Source: Cyanobacteriota bacterium (GTDB lineage: Bacteria; Cyanobacteriota; Cyanobacteriia; CACIAM-69d). Taken from it: a DNA stretch of 64,000 bases. Shown here piece by piece: positions 6,086 through 34,557 of this stretch. Both the position numbers and the translations under genes were made by a program. The notes below the pieces were generated by a model. That model saw only the letters and a program-made list of their open reading frames with translations, ran no database searches and was not told the origin of the DNA. The stretch's first letter is position 1; every line of letters starts with the position of its first letter. The stretch lies in NCBI GenBank assembly GCA_022402445.1, contig JAKRSF010000003.1, positions 186,001 to 250,000 of the forward strand, given 5' to 3'.

Positions 6086-7090
6086 CTAGCGGATTTCCCG
6101 AGGGGGCGGGGCCGCTGGGCCGGGGCGCTCACCGCTGGGGCGGACCACGGGCAGGGCGGCGGGCAGGACGCGGAAGTGGGCGGGGGTTTCGGTTGTGATT
6201 TCGCCGTCGGTGTTGACCGATCGCGTCCGGCGGGTGTGGACAATGATTTCCTCGGCCTCGAGGGTGCGGACGGTGGCGGCGCGGGATTGGCGACCGCTGC
6301 GCAGGGCGGGCAACAGGGGCAGCATTTGCCACCAATGGGAAATTTCGAGGCTGTAGAGATCTAAGCGGCGATCATCAATGGTGGCATCCCAGGCGATCGC
6401 GAGGCCGCCGCCGTAGTAGCGCCCATTGCCCACGGCGATCTGCACCGTTCGGACCTGGACAATCTCCCCATTGGCCTCAATCTGGGCATGGAAGGGGCGC
6501 GAATGGGTTAGGGCCTGGATGGCGGACCACAGATAGGCCAAGACGCCCCAGCGCTTTTTCTGGGCACCGCTGAGGTAGCGGGTGATTTTGACGCTGAGGC
6601 CCAGGCTGGCGACGTTGAAAAAGTAGCGATCGTTCACCTGGCCGATGTCGATGGGCTGGATGGGGCCGGTGGCGATCGCGCGGCAGGCCCCATCGAGGTC
6701 CAGGGGCAATTCCAGGGTGCGGGCCAGGTCGTTGGCGGTGCCCAGGGGCAAAATCCCCAGGGTCAGGCCCGTTTCCAGCAGGGCGGGCAATGCGCCATTG
6801 AGGGTGCCGTCGCCGCCGCCAATGACCACCACATCCACGCGATCGGCGTACTGGCGGATGGTGTGGCTGAGGTCTTCGGGCGATCGCGTCGAGCGGAAGG
6901 TCACCTCACAGCCGTGGCGCTCGAGCCCCTCGATCGCTTGGCCCGTCGCTTCGCGGCCCCGGCGGGAATGGCGATTGATCAGCAGCAGCACCCGGCGATG
7001 GGCGATCGCGGGGGGGGTATCAGTGGCCGCCGTCTCCGTCAGTGGGGCGGGCGAGGGCGGCGGTGGTGGCGGTGATTGGTTGAGGTCCAT
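6086..7090 (-). CDS. YegS/diacylglycerol-kinase-type lipid kinase
   Basis: Predicted lipid kinase of the YegS/DAGK catalytic family. From the chosen ATG the product is 334 residues: a proline-rich start, then VLLLINRHSRRG, the nucleotide-binding loop VVIGGGDGTLNGALPAL, and ILPLGTANDLART, all family hallmarks. An in-frame start at 7207 would add 39 residues (MALAIGAIGADLGRI and onward) that match nothing in the family and lie in the divergent promoter facing larE, so I prefer 7090. The lipid substrate is unknown. Confidence 0.85.
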   Translation of the reverse strand: MDLNQSPPPPPPSPAPLTETAATDTPPAIAHRRVLLLINRHSRRGREATGQAIEGLERHGCEVTFRSTRSPEDLSHTIRQYADRVDVVVIGGGDGTLNGALPALLETGLTLGILPLGTANDLARTLELPLDLDGACRAIATGPIQPIDIGQVNDRYFFNVASLGLSVKITRYLSGAQKKRWGVLAYLWSAIQALTHSRPFHAQIEANGEIVQVRTVQIAVGNGRYYGGGLAIAWDATIDDRRLDLYSLEISHWWQMLPLLPALRSGRQSRAATVRTLEAEEIIVHTRRTRSVNTDGEITTETPAHFRVLPAALPVVRPSGERPGPAAPPPREIR

Positions 7091-7268
7091 GAGAACAAAC
7101 CGGCGGTCCCCCAAAACGTTATCCCTAATTTTGCCCTGACCGGGGGCCGCGATCGCCCCATGGATCCGCCCCAAGTCCGCCCCAATCGCGCCGATCGCCA
7201 GGGCCATTCCTGAACAATTTCCCTACAATGGGAGCCCTGCCCCCTTGCCATTCCCCCTGCCCTGTGCC

Positions 7269-8147
7269 ATGACCGTCGCTGATCTCCCCGTGACCCTGGC
7301 TGGCCCCCTGGCGGCCAAGCTCGCGCAACTCCGTCGAATTTTTGCCCAGGCCGATCGCGCCCTGGTAGCCTACTCCGGCGGCATTGATAGCACCCTGGTG
7401 GCCAAGGTGGCCTGGGATGTGCTGGGCGATCGCGCGATCGCCATCACCGCCGAATCCCCCTCCCTGCTGCCGGAGGATCTCGACGATGCCAAGGCCCAGG
7501 CCGCCGCGATCGGCATTGCCCACGAAATCGTCCAAACCCACGAACTGGACAATCCGTCCTACGCCAGCAACCCCGCCAACCGCTGCTATTTCTGCAAGAG
7601 CGAACTCCACGACACCCTCAAACCCCTGGCGATCGCGCGGGGCTATCCCTACGTGGTCGATGGGGTCAATGCCGACGACCTCCAGGACTATCGACCGGGC
7701 ATCCAGGCGGCCCAGGAACGGGGGGCGCGATCGCCCCTGGCGGAGGTGGGCATCAGCAAAGCGGAGGTGCGGGAACTGGCGCGCCATCTGGGGCTCCCCT
7801 GGTGGGACAAGCCCGCCCAGCCCTGCCTCAGCTCCCGGTTCCCCTACGGCGAAGCGATCACCGCCGAAAAGCTCCAGCGGGTGGGCCGCGCCGAACGGCA
7901 TTTGCGGCTTCTGGGCTGGCGCGAAGTGCGGGTGCGCTCCGTCGGTGACACGGCCCGCATCGAAGTACCTGCCGATCGCCTGACGGAATTCGTCACCACC
8001 CTGGACCTGCCGGATTTGGTGGCCCGCTTCCAGGACTATGGCTTTTTATTCGTCACCCTGGATCTAGAAGGGTTCGCCAGCGGCAAGCTCAATCGGGTGC
8101 TGAACCGCGATCGCGCGATCGCCCCCGTCCCCTTAGCCCAGCCTTAA
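7269..8147 (+). CDS. larE: LarE-type ATP-dependent sacrificial sulfur transferase
   Basis: PP-loop ATP pyrophosphatase of the LarE family, which adenylates the carboxylates of a pyridinium precursor and donates sulfur in synthesis of the nickel-pincer cofactor. The 292-residue product has the PP-loop as VAYSGGIDSTLVAKVA, the family-typical NRCYFCKSELHD with two Cys residues, and CLSSRFPYG. An upstream in-frame ATG at 7245 would add eight residues; the ATG at 7269 gives a more typical N-terminus. LarB, LarC and a racemase are absent from the window, so the use of the cofactor here is open. Confidence 0.9.
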   Translation: MTVADLPVTLAGPLAAKLAQLRRIFAQADRALVAYSGGIDSTLVAKVAWDVLGDRAIAITAESPSLLPEDLDDAKAQAAAIGIAHEIVQTHELDNPSYASNPANRCYFCKSELHDTLKPLAIARGYPYVVDGVNADDLQDYRPGIQAAQERGARSPLAEVGISKAEVRELARHLGLPWWDKPAQPCLSSRFPYGEAITAEKLQRVGRAERHLRLLGWREVRVRSVGDTARIEVPADRLTEFVTTLDLPDLVARFQDYGFLFVTLDLEGFASGKLNRVLNRDRAIAPVPLAQP

Positions 8148-8528
8148 CCTTGATTTATCCCCCGACGCGCCCCAGGGTCCTCCCCGGCGGCCATTCCTGG
8201 GGCCATTTCAGCGGCCATTGATTGTAGAAAGTAGAGGGCCATCGGCCCAGAAATACAAAAGACTTATGGGCTTTCTAGGGGCGTAGCCTGTCGAAAAAGA
8301 GTCCCTCAGTCTAGAATCAGCACTGATGCCTGGGACATTAAGGCAACGTTAACCGTTCCGCCCGCGCGATTTCCCCTTGCCAAACCCAAGGCAGCGATCG
8401 CGCCCAACGCCCAGGATCATCCACAATCTAGTCCGGGCGATCGCACTGCCCCACACCAGAGGCCCACCGCGATCGCACCACACGGACCCCAAAGGCCAAC
8501 ACAACCCTTGATGAGGAGTGATCGTTCC
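8148..8528. other. Intergenic region between larE and the small lipoprotein gene
   Basis: About 380 bp. Around 8236-8248 there is a short GC hairpin (GGGCC-ATC-GGCCC) nested in a weaker inverted repeat (TAGAAAG near 8225, CTTTCTA near 8271), possibly the larE transcript end. A GAGGAG ribosome site sits at 8512-8517, before the lipoprotein start. Nothing else recognisable. Confidence 0.4.
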
Positions 8529-27181: not shown

Positions 27182-28972
27182 ATGCCTGTGAGTTCTAGGT
27201 CGTCTTCGCAGTTATTTCAGCACTTTGATCGCGCGATTGTTCGCTTCTTTAAGGCTAATGGCAAGGAGGAGGCGGGCGCGGGATTTTTGATTGACCATAA
27301 CTATGTGGTGACCTGTGCCCATGTGGTGAATGCGGTGCTTGGGCTGTCGGATCGGTCACCCGATCGCCCGACGGAGCCTATTGCTTTGGAATTTGTCCCG
27401 GCTCGGGAGATGCGATCGGCGCGGGTGGTTGGTTGGCATCCTGTGTTGGAAACGGGTGAAATTTCCCTGACCACGTTGGAGGATTTGGCGGTTTTGCAAT
27501 TGACCGCTCCGCCACCGGATGCCGCGATCGCGGCGGGGCCATTTTTGTCCATGGATTATTCCGTGGGGGGTTCCTTTAAGGCATTCGGGTTTGCGGATGA
27601 GGCAGGGCGTTGGGCCTATGGGACATTGCGCGATCGCTGGCCCACCACCGGTTGGATTCAGCTAGAGGCGGAAAAAACTGAAGGAAAACGCATTGAAGGG
27701 GGCTTTAGTGGGACGCCTGTTTGGGATGAACAACAAAAAATCATAGGAATTGTGGTAGCAGCAGACAAGACTGTCGATGATCGCGTGGCGATGGCAATTC
27801 CGGCGGAAAAAATACGATTAGCGCTCCGAGGAATTGATATTGAGAGCTTGGGTTTAATTCTCCAAGCCCCCGCTAATATTCCCAACAACTGGATTCGTTT
27901 ATACAACCTAATTAAGCCAGCGGGTTATTTAGTTCATTGCCCGATCGCGCCCCACGATTTTTTGACGGCGTTGCAGGATATGAGTTGGCCGCCGGATGCG
28001 CCCGGTGATGCCCTGCTACTGTTTGTGGCGGGGTTGGTGTTGGATTTAGCTGTTCAGAAAGAAGTGCGCGATCGCCTCATGGAGTGGCTAGGGACTCGCG
28101 CCTCTAATCCAATTGACCTAGAGCACTATATTCGACAGCTTGATCGAGAGGAGGAAGAGATTCAAGCTAAAAATGACAACACTGATCCTTGCGTTTTAGT
28201 CGTATTAGAGAAAAGCGCCCAGTCCCCTGGATTCTATCGAGTGCAGGCTTGGGCCATGGGCGATCGCCATCAGCCGCGCCATGAGCTATTGCACGATAGC
28301 GAAGCGCCATTGATGACCTTCGCAGATTTGCCCCAGTGGCTAGGAATGCTCAAGGCGCGCATGGCCCCCTATGCCTGGACTGAACGCACCATCGAGATTT
28401 TTTTGCCGCTGGAATTGCTCAATGAAGCGATTGATCAAATTGCCCCAGAGGAGGATGATTTTGATGCATTATTTTCCCTGCCGTTGGGGTGTGAATATCG
28501 CGTGGTGGTGCGCTTCAGTGAACGCTTGCAGGAAACCTATAAATATCGCGGGGAATGGCAACAGAAATGGCGACAACTGCAAAATCATCAACAGGATTGC
28601 GCAAGACAACGGCTGCGCTTGGGTGATTGCGCGTCTGAAAATGATCTGAAAATGTTGGTTCGTGATCTGATGCGGCCCGATGCGATCGGCATTCGTCGCA
28701 GTCAGCCGCCCGAGTCGGACCTGCGCCGCAGTATTCTGGCGGCATCGTTGCGGACGGGGTTGCCGGTGGCCGCTTGGGTGCGCTGCGATCGCCCCGGCCT
28801 CAACTGCTCGGAGGAGCTTGATCGCGTGATTATTGGCCCCCTCGCCACCCTGCCTGATCGCGTCCATGAAGCCCGCCGTCAGGATACGGAAATCGGTCAA
28901 CACCTTTCATTGATGTGGGACGATCCCACCTGTTTACCGCCCGGTTATCTCGATAGTCCATTGATCTCCTAG
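27182..28972 (+). CDS. Trypsin-like protease with VMAP-type C-terminal region
   Basis: Predicted effector of a vWA/MoxR-associated system. The N-terminal about 220 residues are a trypsin-fold protease with an intact triad: His47 in VVTCAHVVN, Asp101 in LEDLAVLQL and Ser176 in GGFSGTPVW. The remaining 375 residues have no enzyme motif but fit the vWA-MoxR-associated protein (VMAP) middle and C-terminal regions: PCVLVVLE, a central FLPLELLNEAIDQ, EYRVVVRFSERLQETY, and a WVRCDRPG segment. No signal peptide or membrane segment, so it is cytoplasmic. The second half is AT-richer than the chromosome around it. The MoxR gene follows after 50 bp. Confidence 0.8.
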   Translation: MPVSSRSSSQLFQHFDRAIVRFFKANGKEEAGAGFLIDHNYVVTCAHVVNAVLGLSDRSPDRPTEPIALEFVPAREMRSARVVGWHPVLETGEISLTTLEDLAVLQLTAPPPDAAIAAGPFLSMDYSVGGSFKAFGFADEAGRWAYGTLRDRWPTTGWIQLEAEKTEGKRIEGGFSGTPVWDEQQKIIGIVVAADKTVDDRVAMAIPAEKIRLALRGIDIESLGLILQAPANIPNNWIRLYNLIKPAGYLVHCPIAPHDFLTALQDMSWPPDAPGDALLLFVAGLVLDLAVQKEVRDRLMEWLGTRASNPIDLEHYIRQLDREEEEIQAKNDNTDPCVLVVLEKSAQSPGFYRVQAWAMGDRHQPRHELLHDSEAPLMTFADLPQWLGMLKARMAPYAWTERTIEIFLPLELLNEAIDQIAPEEDDFDALFSLPLGCEYRVVVRFSERLQETYKYRGEWQQKWRQLQNHQQDCARQRLRLGDCASENDLKMLVRDLMRPDAIGIRRSQPPESDLRRSILAASLRTGLPVAAWVRCDRPGLNCSEELDRVIIGPLATLPDRVHEARRQDTEIGQHLSLMWDDPTCLPPGYLDSPLIS

Positions 28973-29022: not shown

Positions 29023-30024
29023 ATGAGTAATTGGCATCTGTTTCGCGGCAACCTTGACGGCCATCCAACGGAACCCCACGATCGCATTGAAGAGTTGCCC
29101 AATCCCCCCAGGTGGCGACCGGCGGGCGAGGCAAAAATTGATCGACAAGCTCGGCGGGCCAAGGCTTTTCAAGCGACGGCAGAACAGGTGGAAATGGTCA
29201 ATGCGGCGCTCTATCTGCGGCGGCCATTGTTGGTGACAGGAAAACCGGGGACGGGGAAAACCTCCTTGGCCTATGCGGTGGCGGAGGAATTGAAGCTGGG
29301 GGAGGTGCTCTATTGGCCGATCACGACGCGAACGACGTTGAAAGATGGCCTCTATGGTTACGATGCGATCGCGCGGCTCCAGGACACTAAATTAGATCAG
29401 CCCGTCACCGATGGGGAGGGAAAGAATAACGGCGATCGCGGCAATCTATCCCAAATTGGCCGCTACATTACCCTGGGGCCTTTGGGAACGGCGTTGTTAC
29501 CCCATAAACGTCCACGGCTGCTGTTAATTGATGAAATTGATAAGAGTGATCTGGATTTGCCCAATGATTTGCTCCATGCTTTTGAGGAGGGGGCATTTCA
29601 AATTCCTGAGCTGAAGCGCATTAGTCAACAACAGTCGAAGGTAATCGTTCAAACTGCCGACGGACAAACGGCCCTAATCAAACATGGGGAGGTATGTTGC
29701 CGTCAGTTTCCGTTGGTGATCTTGACGAGCAATGGGGAACGGGATTTTCCGGCTCCATTTTTGCGGCGCTGCTTGCGGCTAGAAATTCCAGAACCGGGCA
29801 AGGATGAATTGCGGCGGATTGCGATCGCGCATTTGGGCGAAGAATCCGCAGAAATTGCCGAGGAGATCATTAATCAATTCCTTGACAAACGGAACAGCGC
29901 AGAGTTGGCAACGGATCAATTGCTGAATGCGATCTATTTGGTGATGCGCTCGAATCCATCGGAGGGCGATCGCGACGGGCTCATTGATCGCCTGTTGCAA
30001 CCCCTGGGCGGGCCGGGGCAATGA
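29023..30024 (+). CDS. MoxR-type AAA+ ATPase
   Basis: ATP-driven remodeller of the MoxR class, normally paired with vWA proteins. In 333 residues: Walker A GKPGTGKT (73-80), Walker B LLLIDEIDKSD (about 167-177), a sensor segment VILTSNGERDFPAPFLRRC, and arginine-finger candidates in FLRRCLRLEIP. It precedes the vWA-like gene with an ATGA overlap, so the two are translated together, as expected for a MoxR-vWA pair. In this setting it probably transduces the signal of the sensor to the protease; that role is inferred. Confidence 0.9.
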   Translation: MSNWHLFRGNLDGHPTEPHDRIEELPNPPRWRPAGEAKIDRQARRAKAFQATAEQVEMVNAALYLRRPLLVTGKPGTGKTSLAYAVAEELKLGEVLYWPITTRTTLKDGLYGYDAIARLQDTKLDQPVTDGEGKNNGDRGNLSQIGRYITLGPLGTALLPHKRPRLLLIDEIDKSDLDLPNDLLHAFEEGAFQIPELKRISQQQSKVIVQTADGQTALIKHGEVCCRQFPLVILTSNGERDFPAPFLRRCLRLEIPEPGKDELRRIAIAHLGEESAEIAEEIINQFLDKRNSAELATDQLLNAIYLVMRSNPSEGDRDGLIDRLLQPLGGPGQ

Positions 30025-32786
30025 GCGATCTGGGGCCATGGGCACAGTTGATGGAGCGCCTTCAACGGGCGGGCCTGGATTTTGATGGCGAAGATCTGGC
30101 CGATGCGGTTTGGCTGGCGCAGCAGATCGATGCGATTGACGCGAAAACCGATCGCGTGCCGGAGGCGATCGCCCCGAACAGGCCAGACGTTTGGCCGGAA
30201 TTGCCGCTGGAAGGTGCGCCGGAATTGACGCCGGAGCCGGAGCCATCACCACCGCCAGCGATCGCGCCGATCGCGCCGGAACCTTCAGCCTCCGCAGTCC
30301 TGCCCCCAACGGCCCCAACGGCCCCCCACCAACCCGAGCCTCAGTCCCTCCCCGATCGCGCGGATGGCTTACCCTTCAAGGCTCCGGCGGCTCCGGCCCT
30401 GCGTCAGGTGCGCCAACTGGAAAAGGCCCTGCGGCCCCTGATGCGGAAGGTGCCTTCCACCACGCGGTTTGAGCTAGACGAAACGGCGACGGTGGAACAG
30501 GTGGCCGATCGCGACTGGTGGCTGCCGGTGGTGCGGCCTGCCCTGGAACGGTGGCTGGATGTGGCGCTGGTGGTGGAAGAGTCCCCCGCGATCGCCCTCT
30601 GGGACCGGGTGATTGACGATTGGCAAGGGCTCCTCGGCCGGGTGGGGGCCTTTCGGGATGTGCGGGTGTGGTCGTTGCGGGGCACCGAGACCGGTTCCAT
30701 TACCCTCGCGCCGCGCACCCACAATCCCAGCGGCCAGGGGCGATCGGCCAATCCCCGCCAACTCCTAGATCCGAGCGGGCGGCGGCTGATCCTCCTCATG
30801 AGCGACTGCACGTCGGGCCTGTGGCGGGATGAATCCCTGGCCCTGCGATCGGTGCTAGAAACCTGGGGGGCCGCCGGTCCTTTGGCCCTGGTGCAGCTTT
30901 TGCCGGAGCGGCTGTGGCGGCGCACGGCGTTGGTGGTGGCCCATGGGGTACAACTGTCGGCGACTTTGCCGGGAATAGCGAGCGATCGCCTGGAGATTTC
31001 TGGCTTGCCGGAGTGGGATGAGGTGGAAACGGCGGGTTCCCTGCGGTTGCCGGTGGTGACCCTCGCGCCGGAACCGTTGGCCCGGTGGGCGCGGCTGGTG
31101 GCGGGGGCGGGCGATTCCCTGTCGGCGGGGGTGCTGTTCGAGGCGGGGATTGTTTGGCGGCCCCGCGTGGTGGATTCGACCGATGCCCCGGATGCGGAAA
31201 CGATCGCGCGGCAGTTTTGGGCGGTGGCGTCCCCCCTGGCGAGCCAGTTGGCGGGCTATCTGGCGGCGGTGCCGGTGAGTTTGCCGGTGCTGCATCTGAT
31301 CCAGGCGGCCCTGTTGCCGGAGTCAAACCAGGTCCACGCGGCGGAGGTGTTCCTGGGGGGCCTGATGGAGCGCCGGGGTACCGATGGGGATGGGGTGCCG
31401 ATCTATGACTTTCGAGAGGGGGTGCGATCGTGGTTGGTGGGGTCGATGCCGCGATCGAGTACAGAAAAAGTCTTGAATGCGGTTTCGGATCAGATTGCGA
31501 AACGTTGGGGCCTGTCAAGCCGGGGGTTTCGGGCGCTGTTGCTCAATCCCCATGGCCCCCTGCCGGAGGATGCCACTGATGAACTGCGGGCGTTTGCCAG
31601 GATTGCGCAATCAACGCTCCGGCGGATGGGGGGTGAGTTTGCGGCCCTGGGCGATCGCTTGGAACCCGAAACGGTTGGGTCTGTTGCTCTTGAGATCGGA
31701 TCTATTGGCCCACCTCCTGACAATAAGAGGCTTGAGTCCCTTGAAACAACCCAGCAAGAATCACAAAAAGAACTCATCAACTTCCCGCCGCTGACTGAAA
31801 TTACGTTTGAAGAAGGCTATCTCGCAGTTGAAGGGGAATTTGAACCGCCACTGATTGAAAGCCTAAACCTGGAGTGGTTTGTGTTTGAAGCCGCGATCAC
31901 CACCCTTGATCGCACTGTGTCACCACCCCAACTGCACATCGAGCGCTTTTCTCAGGAAGCACAACAGTTAGTAGAACTCTTACCCCATGGCGTGACTTTG
32001 GAGATGGTACTGATCCCCGGCGGCACATTTCTAATGGGTGCGCCCGAGGAGGAACCTGACTCCAGTGATAATGAGCGTCCACAGCATTGGGTCACCGTAC
32101 CAGAGTTTTTGATGGGGAAATATCCCATCACTCAGGCCCAGTGGCGCGCGATCGCGGCCCTGCCCAGAGTCAACATTGAGCTGAATCCCAATCCATCGAG
32201 ATTTACCGAAGATGCAGAGGGCGACCTAGCAGATAACCGTCCCGTTGAGCAAATCAGTTGGTATGAAGCTTCTGAAGCATGTGATCGCCTAGCCCAAGCC
32301 ACCAGTCGCCTCTATGGCCTGCCCAGTGAAGCCCAGTGGGAATATGCCTGCCGCGCTGGTACCACTACCGCCTTCTACTTTGGCGAAACTCTCTCCCCCG
32401 ATCTTGCTAACTATGACGGCAACTTTACGTATGCTGATGGGCCAAAAGGAATCTACAGAGAGCGAACCACCTCCGTTGGCGTTTTTTATGCCAACGCCTG
32501 GGGTCTATATGACATGCATGGCAACGTTTGGGAATGGTGTGCCGACACTTGGCACTCCAATTATGAAAATGCACCCACCGACGGCAGCGCATGGATTACG
32601 ATGTCTACAAAAGATAAACGGCTTTTGCGAAGCGGTTCATGGTACTACTATCCCAAATTCTGCCGCTCCGCAGCTCGCAGTTATGATGTACCAAGCGATC
32701 AAAATCTCACCTTTGGGCTCAGGCTATGTTGCAGCATAGCGAGTACATCTCAGGCACCCCTGCTTGACAAATCGACAGAGGAGTGA
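30021..32786 (+). CDS. SAV_2336/vWA-like protein fused to an FGE (formylglycine-generating-enzyme-like) domain
   Basis: A 921-residue mosaic. Residues about 125-550 resemble the SAV_2336 N-terminal family, a vWA-like fold partnering MoxR: WLDVALVVEESPAIALW stands where a vWA metal site would read DxSxS, so the site looks degenerate. After a linker, residues about 650-905 form an FGE/SUMF1 domain of C-type-lectin fold: MVLIPGGTFLMGAPEEE, LPSEAQWEYACRAG, DMHGNVWEWCAD, LLRSGSW, ending LRLCC. Composition changes near 31680 from GC-rich to clearly AT-richer, exactly between the two parts. The Pro/Glu/Ala-rich stretch at residues 55-105 is a disordered linker. I infer a sensor (FGE) on a signalling module. 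Confidence 0.82.
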   Translation: MSDLGPWAQLMERLQRAGLDFDGEDLADAVWLAQQIDAIDAKTDRVPEAIAPNRPDVWPELPLEGAPELTPEPEPSPPPAIAPIAPEPSASAVLPPTAPTAPHQPEPQSLPDRADGLPFKAPAAPALRQVRQLEKALRPLMRKVPSTTRFELDETATVEQVADRDWWLPVVRPALERWLDVALVVEESPAIALWDRVIDDWQGLLGRVGAFRDVRVWSLRGTETGSITLAPRTHNPSGQGRSANPRQLLDPSGRRLILLMSDCTSGLWRDESLALRSVLETWGAAGPLALVQLLPERLWRRTALVVAHGVQLSATLPGIASDRLEISGLPEWDEVETAGSLRLPVVTLAPEPLARWARLVAGAGDSLSAGVLFEAGIVWRPRVVDSTDAPDAETIARQFWAVASPLASQLAGYLAAVPVSLPVLHLIQAALLPESNQVHAAEVFLGGLMERRGTDGDGVPIYDFREGVRSWLVGSMPRSSTEKVLNAVSDQIAKRWGLSSRGFRALLLNPHGPLPEDATDELRAFARIAQSTLRRMGGEFAALGDRLEPETVGSVALEIGSIGPPPDNKRLESLETTQQESQKELINFPPLTEITFEEGYLAVEGEFEPPLIESLNLEWFVFEAAITTLDRTVSPPQLHIERFSQEAQQLVELLPHGVTLEMVLIPGGTFLMGAPEEEPDSSDNERPQHWVTVPEFLMGKYPITQAQWRAIAALPRVNIELNPNPSRFTEDAEGDLADNRPVEQISWYEASEACDRLAQATSRLYGLPSEAQWEYACRAGTTTAFYFGETLSPDLANYDGNFTYADGPKGIYRERTTSVGVFYANAWGLYDMHGNVWEWCADTWHSNYENAPTDGSAWITMSTKDKRLLRSGSWYYYPKFCRSAARSYDVPSDQNLTFGLRLCCSIASTSQAPLLDKSTEE
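32634..32732 (+). other. Candidate DGR-type variable region 1 (3' end of the vWA-FGE gene)
   Basis: Last 33 codons of the FGE domain, GSW to CC. Eleven positions that align with those of the neighbouring FGE gene use NNY codons (TAC, TAC, TAT, TTC, GCT, AGT, GAT, GAT, AAT, CTC, ACC), as expected if derived from AAY codons by adenine mutagenesis. Confidence 0.55.
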
Positions 32787-32796
32787 CGTGCGGTCC

Positions 32797-33678
32797 ATGC
32801 AATTACCCGATGCTCCAAGATTTATTTTGCGCTATCGCTCTCGCACTGCTCAGCAGTACCTCGAAGATCTGGGCAACGGCACTATTCTGGAAATGCTAAA
32901 AATCCCAGGCGGCATTTTCCGCATGGGCTCGCCTATCAGCGAACTTGATCATCAAGACGATGAGAGCCCTCAGCACATCGTCACCGTACCAGATTTTTTT
33001 CTAGGGAAATATCCCGTCACCCAAGCCCAATGGCGAGCCATTTGTGGTCTACCCCCAGTCAACCCCGAACTTGTGCTCAATTCTGAACCCTCTCGTTTCC
33101 CTGCTGACTTCCGAGATGGGGAAACGTTTACTAGTGCTGACCAACGTCCCGTAGAACAAGTCAACTGGTATGAATCAACCGAAGCCTGCGCTCGCCTCGC
33201 CCAAGCGACAAGGCGCCCCTACAGCTTGCCCAGCGAAGCTCAGTGGGAATATGCCTGTCGTGCTGGGAGCATAACCTCTTTCCACTTTGGCGAAACCCTT
33301 AGCAGCGAAGTCGCTAACTACAGGGCATCGGTCAAGTATGGACGTGGCACTGAAGGGCTATATCGCCAGGAAACCACACCTGTCGGTTACTTCCCGCCGA
33401 ATGCTTGGGGTCTACACGACATGCATGGCAACATTCGGGAATGGTGTGTTGATCATTGGCACCCAAACTATAGGGGGGCACCAACTGATGGCAGTGCTTG
33501 GGTTACAAGCTTAGCAAGGAATAATACACAGTTGCAGAGGGGACGGTTGCTGAGGGGAGGCTCATGGATTAGCAGTCCGAGATATTGTCGCTCCGCAGTT
33601 CGTTATAGGGCTACGCCAGACTACCGTTTCAACCCTGTTGGTTTTCGGGTTTGCTGTGCCGTCGCGTGGACTTCCTAG
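32797..33678 (+). CDS. Stand-alone FGE/SUMF1-like (C-type-lectin fold) protein
   Basis: A free-standing relative of the FGE domain in the previous gene; by eye the two are more than half identical. The ATG at 32797 gives 293 residues; GTG at 32788 (just after an AGAGGAG ribosome site) and TTG at 32764 are in frame and possible. Motifs: LKIPGGIFRMGSP, LPSEAQWEYACRAG, DMHGNIREWCVD, LLRGGSW, ending GFRVCC. Catalytic function is not claimed; many such domains bind ligands instead of making formylglycine. Likely the end of the island operon and a duplicate of the fused domain. A hairpin follows at 33694. Confidence 0.85.
   Translation: MQLPDAPRFILRYRSRTAQQYLEDLGNGTILEMLKIPGGIFRMGSPISELDHQDDESPQHIVTVPDFFLGKYPVTQAQWRAICGLPPVNPELVLNSEPSRFPADFRDGETFTSADQRPVEQVNWYESTEACARLAQATRRPYSLPSEAQWEYACRAGSITSFHFGETLSSEVANYRASVKYGRGTEGLYRQETTPVGYFPPNAWGLHDMHGNIREWCVDHWHPNYRGAPTDGSAWVTSLARNNTQLQRGRLLRGGSWISSPRYCRSAVRYRATPDYRFNPVGFRVCCAVAWTS
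33559..33657 (+). other. Candidate DGR-type variable region 2 (3' end of the FGE gene)
   Basis: Last 33 codons, GSW to CC. Eleven variable positions are ATT, AGC, AGT, TAT, GTT, TAT, GCT, TAC, TTC, AAC and CCT, all ending in T or C, while the frame around them (CRSA, TPD, VGFRVCC) is conserved. It ends in a GGTTTTCGGGTTTGC stretch resembling the homing-initiation end of known elements. No template repeat is in the window. Confidence 0.6.
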
Positions 33679-33693
33679 TCCTGTTTCCATCAC

Positions 33694-33719
33694 CGCGATC
33701 AAAAAATCCAATGATCGCG
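33694..33719 (+). terminator. Hairpin after the FGE gene
   Basis: An 8-bp stem (33694-33701 with 33712-33719) around a 10-base A-rich loop, 16 bp past the stop codon. It probably ends or stabilises the island transcript. In diversity-generating retroelements a hairpin also follows the variable region, so that reading is possible. Confidence 0.45.
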
Positions 33720-33759
33720 CGCCCGGACCCCCAACACCTATCCTAAGATTGATGCGATC
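33713..33759 (+). repeat. Direct repeat copy 1 (47 bp)
   Basis: Identical at 46 of 47 bases to 34511-34557 (one G/A difference). It lies just upstream of the 121-codon gene; its partner lies just upstream of the SLH/glycosidase gene. Similarity continues upstream with indels (from about 33691; an A-run and GCGATC are shared). It includes CCTAAGAT, promoter-like. Confidence 0.95.
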
Positions 33760-33780: not shown

Positions 33781-34146
33781 ATGTCATCAAATCAAGATTT
33801 TCTAAATCAGCCTCGCACCCTTTACAAAGCCCCTCAAAAAGGAAAAGGCAAAAAGCTGCTGGAGCAAGGCTTTCAAATCGACGACTTTCCCTATAATCCT
33901 CCTTACCTTGACGGCAACTGCTACTTTGCTGGCCCCGACGACAGAAGCATTGCCGAAGAATTTAATCAAAGCTACCAAGAAGGAATCCTTGAGATAACCA
34001 TTGACTCAGAAAGTTATGCACAAGACTTTAAACCCCTGGAATGTCGCTATGATGAAAAAAATGATCGCGAACGGATAGAGGTTGTCGTTCCTCAACGTCT
34101 CTTTCCCACCCTCAATCAATTCCCACGAACCCTAAAGCCCCAGTAA
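33781..34146 (+). CDS. Unknown protein, possible ADP-ribosyltransferase-like fold
   Basis: Not firmly recognised. The 121 residues begin with RTLYKAPQKGKGKKLLEQGF, then GNCYFAGPDDRSIAEEFNQ, ILEITIDSESYAQ, and end ERIEVVVPQRLFPTLN. This order (strand with LY-A, a YFA-D-IA segment, a late Glu in an EVVVP strand) resembles small ADP-ribosyltransferase-fold toxin domains; no Arg in the expected first position is certain. No signal peptide, no delivery domain. AT-rich composition unlike the chromosome. It pairs with the next gene, 5 bp away, inside a repeat-flanked cassette. A toxin role is speculation. Confidence 0.45.
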   Translation: MSSNQDFLNQPRTLYKAPQKGKGKKLLEQGFQIDDFPYNPPYLDGNCYFAGPDDRSIAEEFNQSYQEGILEITIDSESYAQDFKPLECRYDEKNDRERIEVVVPQRLFPTLNQFPRTLKPQ

Positions 34147-34151
34147 ACACC

Positions 34152-34469
34152 ATGGATGACGCCAGTTGGGAACAGATCAAATCTCAATATAAGCTAGGTC
34201 AATTTATCCAGGGCAACGTTGAATTTCATGCACCCTTCGGCATCTTCCTTACCCTAGAAGCCCCTCATATCAAAGGCTTAATCAAGCTCCCCGACTTTTT
34301 GGATGAGGGCACCATGGACCCCAGCCTATATCCCGAACTGGGTGCAATGGTTGGCGCGGTGGTGGTGGGCTACAACGAAAGCAACCGCCGAGAAATCTAC
34401 CTCAGTGCCAAGCCCAGCGTTCTACACAAGGCCCTCGTTCCCCTCAAGCTGCCCGCCCTGATGATCTAG
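34152..34469 (+). CDS. Small S1-like (OB-fold) domain protein
   Basis: A 105-residue protein that is essentially one S1-like RNA-binding domain: YKLGQFIQGNVEFHAPFGIFLTL, then HIKGLIKLPDFLD, and GAMVGAVVVGYNESNRREIYLS matches the late S1 strands. RNA binding is inferred from the fold only. It follows the 121-codon gene by five bases, so the two are likely one transcript, and could be its antidote or partner. Short C-terminal tail of unknown role. Confidence 0.6.
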   Translation: MDDASWEQIKSQYKLGQFIQGNVEFHAPFGIFLTLEAPHIKGLIKLPDFLDEGTMDPSLYPELGAMVGAVVVGYNESNRREIYLSAKPSVLHKALVPLKLPALMI

Positions 34470-34510
34470 CCAGATCCACCGCGATCGCGCCCTGGCCCGA
34501 AAAAACAGGC

Positions 34511-34557
34511 GATCGCGCGCCCGAACCCCCAACACCTATCCTAAGATTGATGCGATC
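34511..34557 (+). repeat. Direct repeat copy 2 (47 bp)
   Basis: Second copy of the repeat at 33713-33759, 798 bp apart. Both copies precede a coding start, so the repeat may carry a promoter. The segment between them holds exactly two genes. Confidence 0.95.

What the first reader, a model, noticed from the sequence alone, without database searches (positions are those of the whole stretch)
32634..33657. Both FGE domains end in what look like DGR variable regions
Aligning the last 33 codons of the two FGE domains (32634-32732 and 33559-33657), 11 codon positions differ in every case and all 22 codons end in C or T, consistent with AAY codons mutated at their A positions. The frame around them (CRSA, conserved P, G, R, CC) is kept. 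This is the known signature of diversity-generating retroelement targets with C-type-lectin/FGE fold. No reverse transcriptase, Avd or template repeat is in the window, so diversification would be in trans or is old. Positions were chosen from copy 2; copy 1 then agreed at 11 of 11.
Basis: partly seen in the sequence, partly recalled or inferred. Interest (0 to 1): 0.92.

Follow-up and report, generated by a model that had tools for sequence, protein, structure and literature searches.

The report
Orphaned, frozen DGR-made sensor ends
Two neighbouring genes of a cyanobacterial defence-like operon end in stretches that were evidently once rewritten by a targeted-mutation machine (a diversity-generating retroelement), but the machine and its template are no longer found anywhere in this genome, so the variable ends look like a frozen repertoire rather than an active one.

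Summary
The last 33 codons of the two FGE domains differ at all 11 named codons, and all 22 of those codons end in C/T. The 11 positions are the AAY codons of real template repeats (TRs) found in homologous loci (L077 exactly; L011 at 10 of 11), so they are not merely post hoc. The genes form a VMAP ternary conflict system: trypsin-VMAP, MoxR, SAV_2336/vWA-FGE, FGE. In Trichodesmium the same gene order carries RT and TR between the two FGE genes. Both ends carry the codon signature of DGR variable regions. But this 99.93%-complete genome has no reverse transcriptase of any kind, no remnant of a DGR RT, and no TR was found. Silent sites of the two variable-region frames have diverged as far as the rest of the domains (8/13 vs 65/124), so no shared template has rewritten them recently. 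One of six genomes of the family keeps RT and TR (Limnothrix, G002). A third FGE gene in the window's genome (contig C9) differs from that TR mostly at template adenines (20/26 A vs 15/73 non-A, p=5e-7). Best reading: orphaned, frozen DGR targets in a known kind of conflict system.

The parts
27182..28972 (+). Trypsin-like peptidase + VMAP-M1 + VMAP-C protein (596 aa), VMAP component of the ternary conflict system
   Evidence: Pfam PF20028 VMAP-C E=1e-37, PF13365 Trypsin_2 6.5e-12, PF19963 VMAP-M1 1.1e-5
29023..30024 (+). MoxR-like AAA+ ATPase (333 aa)
   Evidence: PF07728 AAA_5 3.5e-9; weak PF20030 bpMoxR below its cut-off; 74% identical to the MoxR beside the fused SAV_2336-FGE gene of G003
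30021..32786 (+). SAV_2336 (vWA-type) N-terminal region fused to a C-terminal FGE / C-type-lectin-fold domain (921 aa), first target
   Evidence: NCBIfam NF041121 SAV_2336_NTERM 427.6 bits, residues 23-497; PF03781 FGE-sulfatase residues 661-902 E=7.5e-53
32634..32732 (+). Variable region 1, orphaned DGR-type VR; frame partly decayed
   Evidence: 11/11 template-defined N positions are NNY; no TR in the window
32797..33678 (+). FGE-only protein (293 aa from ATG; a TTG start at 32764 is possible), second target
   Evidence: PF03781 E=6.2e-50; TvpA 2y3c E=8e-22; closest relative 69-71% identical in Limnothrix
33559..33657 (+). Variable region 2, orphaned DGR-type VR; frame GGSW...P..CRSA.R...PD.R...GFRVCC intact
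   Evidence: 11/11 NNY; the only TR-compatible match to the whole VR in the genome is the VR itself
33666..33675 (+). Possible remnant of the IMH-like 3' motif (GTGGACTTCC; Limnothrix C5 and Trichodesmium VRs have CCAGGACTC, their TRs CCAGCACTC)
   Evidence: eye comparison of 3' ends; weak

Best explanation
The two FGE domains are orphaned, now frozen targets of a diversity-generating retroelement inside a VMAP (trypsin / MoxR / SAV_2336-vWA) ternary conflict system. In an ancestor, a DGR reverse transcriptase copied a template repeat with errors at adenines and rewrote the last ~100 bases of these genes, varying 11 AAY-derived codons on the ligand-binding face of a C-type-lectin fold (inferred from homology). 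The RT and TR were later lost from this lineage. What remains is a pair of fixed binding variants fused to, or encoded beside, the vWA component; they presumably still act as sensor or effector modules that signal through MoxR to the trypsin-type VMAP protein (function inferred from Kaur 2020 and Dore 2024, untested). Shown here: the codon signature, homology, operon, absence of RT and of a detectable TR, silent-site divergence, and an RT+TR+target DGR in a sister genus. Inferred: loss rather than never having had the cassette nearby, ligand binding, and defence function.
For: Positions are template-defined and 22/22 NNY. Homologous loci with RT nearby average 10.7/11 NNY against 5.4 expected from their bodies. 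Trichodesmium L021 has VMAP-MoxR-SAV2336-FGE-RT-TR-FGE, the window's order plus RT and TR between the two FGE genes; Microcystis L049 has MoxR-SAV2336-FGE-RT-FGE (TR in L021 seen). The window genome's orthologue of that gene on C9 has no RT or TR beside it, yet differs from the Limnothrix TR at 20/26 A and only 15/73 non-A positions (p=5e-7), and keeps the CCAGGAC 3' motif. In G003 the fused SAV2336-FGE relative of the window protein (SAV2336 60%, MoxR 74%) carries a VR that differs from that same TR at 15/26 A and 6/73 non-A (p=9e-7). In Limnothrix three FGE genes with divergent bodies have near-identical VR frames at silent sites (3/17, 4/18, 2/17 against 51/128, 53/96, 54/100), and the C73 body is sister to the C5 target although its VR frame is of the C27 kind: a footprint of retrohoming. 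No RT in the window genome, no TR, no homing footprint between its two VRs (8/13 vs 65/124, p=0.57).
Against: No TR that fits these two VRs was found in any of the six family genomes, so the template itself is not seen. Codon 14 is GTT in four of the five related VRs and may not be a variable site in this lineage. FGE domains without a nearby RT also score high (mean 10.0/11), because many may be trans targets and because this surface favours residues with NNY codons. The amino-acid-conditioned evidence for the window alone is moderate (p about 0.003).
Confidence: 0.8

Rival explanations
1. The DGR is still active in trans: an RT and TR on a plasmid, a phage or an unassembled stretch rewrites these VRs.
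For: Remote DGR targets are common in cyanobacteria (PMC7517822); the reading frames are intact; the assembly has 13 contigs.
Against: 99.93% complete genome with no RT and no TR found. The frames of the two VRs differ at 8/13 silent codons, as much as the bodies, unlike VRs homed from one TR. VR1 has lost frame residues.
Confidence: 0.05
2. Ordinary divergence of a paralogous ligand-binding loop under positive selection, never touched by a DGR; the C/T endings reflect amino-acid preference for Y, N, D, S, F.
For: 12 of 22 codons at the 11 positions encode residues that have only NNY codons; other FGE domains without a nearby RT score high too.
Against: Unforced codons are 10/10 NNY (expected 6) in the window and 13/13 in Limnothrix, p=0.003 and 9e-5; frame codons show no such bias, 15/30. 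Positions coincide with AAY codons of true TRs. The same operon carries RT and TR elsewhere. Adenine-directed mismatches of C9 and G003 to the Limnothrix TR.
Confidence: 0.08
3. The FGE genes were acquired already diversified, by horizontal transfer, and this lineage itself never hosted a DGR.
For: No RT in the only genome held of the window's genus; RT is patchy, 1 of 6 in the family.
Against: Orthologous tandem FGE pair in Limnothrix (97/99 and 95/75 support) and a separate DGR-type VR on C9 of the window genome suggest vertical inheritance in a family that hosts a DGR.
Confidence: 0.07

Closest known systems
DGR-linked VMAP ternary conflict systems of cyanobacteria (Kaur et al. 2020, PMC7159879; Dore et al. 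2024 RT clade 5E, PMC10907252)
   Same: Same three components, vWA component fused to an FGS/FGE C-type-lectin-fold domain with a C-terminal VR, extra FGE gene beside it
   Different: No RT or TR found at the locus or anywhere in the genome; VRs frozen. Kaur et al. [quoted passage not shown]
Trichodesmium VMAP-DGR locus (L021)
   Same: Same gene order VMAP-MoxR-SAV2336-FGE ... FGE
   Different: A small ORF (possibly Avd, by position only), RT and TR sit between the two FGE genes; in the window only 10 bp separate them
Limnothrix CACIAM 69d C27 tandem FGE pair (L110) and C5 DGR (L108)
   Same: C27 genes are orthologues of the two window domains; C5 caspase-FGE target is the orthologue of the window genome's C9 gene
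   Different: Limnothrix retains RT and TR at C5 and a homing footprint in the C27/C73 VRs; its C27a lacks the SAV2336 region
TvpA of Treponema denticola (2y3c)
   Same: FGE-type C-type-lectin fold with DGR VR at the C terminus, E=8e-22
   Different: Different N-terminal context; TvpA belongs to an RT-bearing DGR (established knowledge)
Degenerate DGR loci of Thiohalocapsa PB-PSB1 (Dore 2024)
   Same: Targets whose own RT or template is missing or broken
   Different: There a complete DGR of the same class persists elsewhere in the genome; here none does

Membership tests
Active diversity-generating retroelement | Reverse transcriptase of the DGR clade in the genome | tested here: not met
   PF00078 0 matches and a Limnothrix DGR RT finds nothing at E<=10 in G000
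Active diversity-generating retroelement | Template repeat identical to the VR except at adenines | tested here: not met
   VR2: genome-wide TR-compatible pattern with up to 3 mismatches hits only the VR itself; pseudo-TR BLAST finds only VR2 and one 16-base chance match. VR1: local scan of the window only, plus the shared pseudo-TR search
Active diversity-generating retroelement | Avd accessory protein | not tested
   No Avd model was searched genome-wide; none of the locus proteins scanned is Avd
Active diversity-generating retroelement | VR variation within the population | not testable with these tools
   Only one genome of the genus is held
DGR target (VR), past or present | Variable codons all derivable from AAY (NNY) at TR-defined positions near the 3' end | tested here: met
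   22/22; positions as in L077 and, at 10 of 11, L011 TRs; the VRs end close to the stop codons
DGR target (VR), past or present | C-type-lectin (FGE) fold with C-terminal VR | tested here: met
   PF03781, TvpA 2y3c; by sequence, no model was built
DGR target (VR), past or present | Frame homogenised by homing from a common template (expected only if homing was recent) | tested here: not met
   8/13 silent changes in frame vs 65/124 in body for the window pair; met in Limnothrix
VMAP ternary conflict system | VMAP protein + MoxR ATPase + vWA component adjacent | tested here: met
   VMAP-C 1e-37, MoxR-like AAA_5; SAV_2336_NTERM 427.6 bits, taken as the vWA component on established knowledge and gene order
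VMAP ternary conflict system | Anti-invader function | not testable with these tools
   Prediction in PMC7159879 and PMC10907252; no experiment

The most novel reading that the evidence does not exclude
A DGR-built, anticipatory binding repertoire was converted into fixed, inherited ('germline') sensors: in this family the RT was lost repeatedly (1 of 6 genomes keeps one) while the diversified FGE sensors and their conflict operon were retained by selection, an adaptive-to-innate transition of a bacterial recognition system.
Probability: 0.3. Interest if true: 0.65.

Novelty: new member of a known kind. Interest (0 to 1): 0.42.

Why it matters
It suggests that DGR targets can outlive their mutator, and gives a small clade (six genomes, three genera) where an RT-bearing relative, its template and RT-less relatives with frozen VRs can be compared directly. 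That makes it possible to ask what fixed ligand a VMAP FGE sensor has settled on, which is hard while the VR keeps changing.

Tried and rejected
A short CRSANR codon pattern gave one hit in the genome against two for the reversed control, so it was treated as chance and not read further. The local TR/VR finder recovers real TRs in L008, L011, L021, L023, L052, L066, L077, L082 and L108 (positive controls) and none in the FGE loci fetched from G001, G003 and G004, in Limnothrix C27 and C73, or around the window genome's C9 gene, nor in the window; hits in L049 and L074 were ordinary paralogue repeats. The Limnothrix C5 TR was considered as the template of the window VRs and rejected: 28-33 of 73 non-adenine positions differ and the 3' ends are unrelated. 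No class-2 TR (GFRVCC end) was found in Limnothrix either. PADLOC gave only weak partial matches. Literature searches for orphan or inactive DGRs gave nothing specific. Structure prediction was not run because the TvpA homology is already strong and coordinates could not be used further.

Full report
What is there. The window lies in a 4.08 Mb genome (13 contigs, 99.93% complete) of a cyanobacterium in the same family as Limnothrix: G002 carries the 86917-base contig listed for Limnothrix sp. CACIAM 69d. Four genes form one operon-like run: trypsin-VMAP (27182-28972), MoxR-like ATPase (29023-30024), a 921-aa SAV_2336-type protein with a C-terminal FGE domain (30021-32786), and an FGE-only protein (32797-33678). 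SAV_2336 is taken here as the vWA component. This is the composition of the VMAP ternary conflict system described by Kaur et al. 2020 (PMC7159879; [quoted passage not shown]

Five related VRs (two here, three in Limnothrix) are 55/55 NNY. Controlling for amino acid, unforced codons are 10/10 NNY in the window (p=0.003) and 13/13 in Limnothrix (p=9e-5), while frame codons show no bias. Across 14 VRs with an RT in the locus the mean is 10.7/11 against 5.4 expected.

DGR ancestry. In Trichodesmium (L021) the same operon reads VMAP, MoxR, SAV2336-FGE, RT, TR, FGE. In a Limnothrix genome (G002) a DGR with RT and TR sits beside a caspase-FGE gene on C5; target and template differ at 14 positions, all template adenines. 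The window genome carries the orthologue of that target on contig C9 (about 70% DNA identity), without RT or TR next to it, and its VR differs from the Limnothrix template at 20 of 26 adenines but only 15 of 73 other positions (p=5e-7); it even keeps the CCAGGAC 3' motif that distinguishes VRs from TRs (CCAGCAC) in Limnothrix and Trichodesmium. In G003 a fused SAV2336-FGE relative of the window's 921-aa protein also carries a VR of that template's kind (15/26 A, 6/73 non-A).

Why frozen. The window's genome has no RT domain at all and no trace of the Limnothrix DGR RT at E<=10. For VR2 a pattern that any true template must fit (each base as in the VR or A, up to 3 mismatches) hits only the VR itself; a pseudo-template probe finds nothing but VR2 and a 16-base chance match. 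VR1 was scanned this way only within the window. If both VRs had recently been rewritten from one template their frames should agree at silent sites. They do not: 8 of 13 identical-residue codons differ, as in the bodies (65 of 124). In Limnothrix the test comes out the other way: three VRs with bodies 50-65% identical have frames differing at only 2-4 of 17-18 silent codons (one pair p=0.001, one 0.009, one 0.06), and the C73 gene groups by body with the C5 target (100/94) while its VR frame is that of C27. So the method detects homing where it happened, and finds none here. Silent divergence is near saturation, so the date cannot be fixed more finely than 'about as old as the split from Limnothrix or older'.

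Mechanism. Past: adenine-directed rewriting of the C-terminal loop of a C-type-lectin fold, inferred from signature and relatives. Present: two fixed binding variants. Dore et al. 2024 (PMC10907252) propose that such targets are antigen sensors that signal through MoxR to the VMAP effector; Kaur et al. place them as effectors. Neither is tested, and nothing here decides between them.

Limits. One genome of the genus is held, so no population test was possible. The template of these two VRs was not found in any of the six family genomes. A clean DGR-free FGE null set was not assembled. Reverse transcriptases on unassembled plasmids cannot be excluded.

Noticed in passing
window 33702-33759 and 34500-34557: A 58-bp direct repeat (90% identical, 798 bp apart) flanks a two-gene block (33781-34146 unknown, 34152-34469 S1-like) just downstream of the second FGE gene; could mark an insertion or duplication.
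   Followed up: partly
window genome contig C9 274416-275210 (L116 6405-8447): Caspase-like/FGE protein with a DGR-type VR and an IMH-like motif but no RT or TR beside it; orthologue of a Limnothrix DGR target that still has RT and TR.
   Followed up: yes
L109 (G002 C73) 6337-8280: FGE gene whose body is sister to the Limnothrix C5 DGR target but whose VR frame is of the C27 kind: a VR swap.
   Followed up: yes
L021 6534-7565: The Trichodesmium RT gene seems to contain an in-frame TAA near 6649 (gaatttaactaa), so this copy may be broken.
   Followed up: no
family genomes G000-G005: RT found in only 1 of 6 genomes while all six keep FGE genes, most with VR-like ends (for example L088, L089, L099).
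   Followed up: partly
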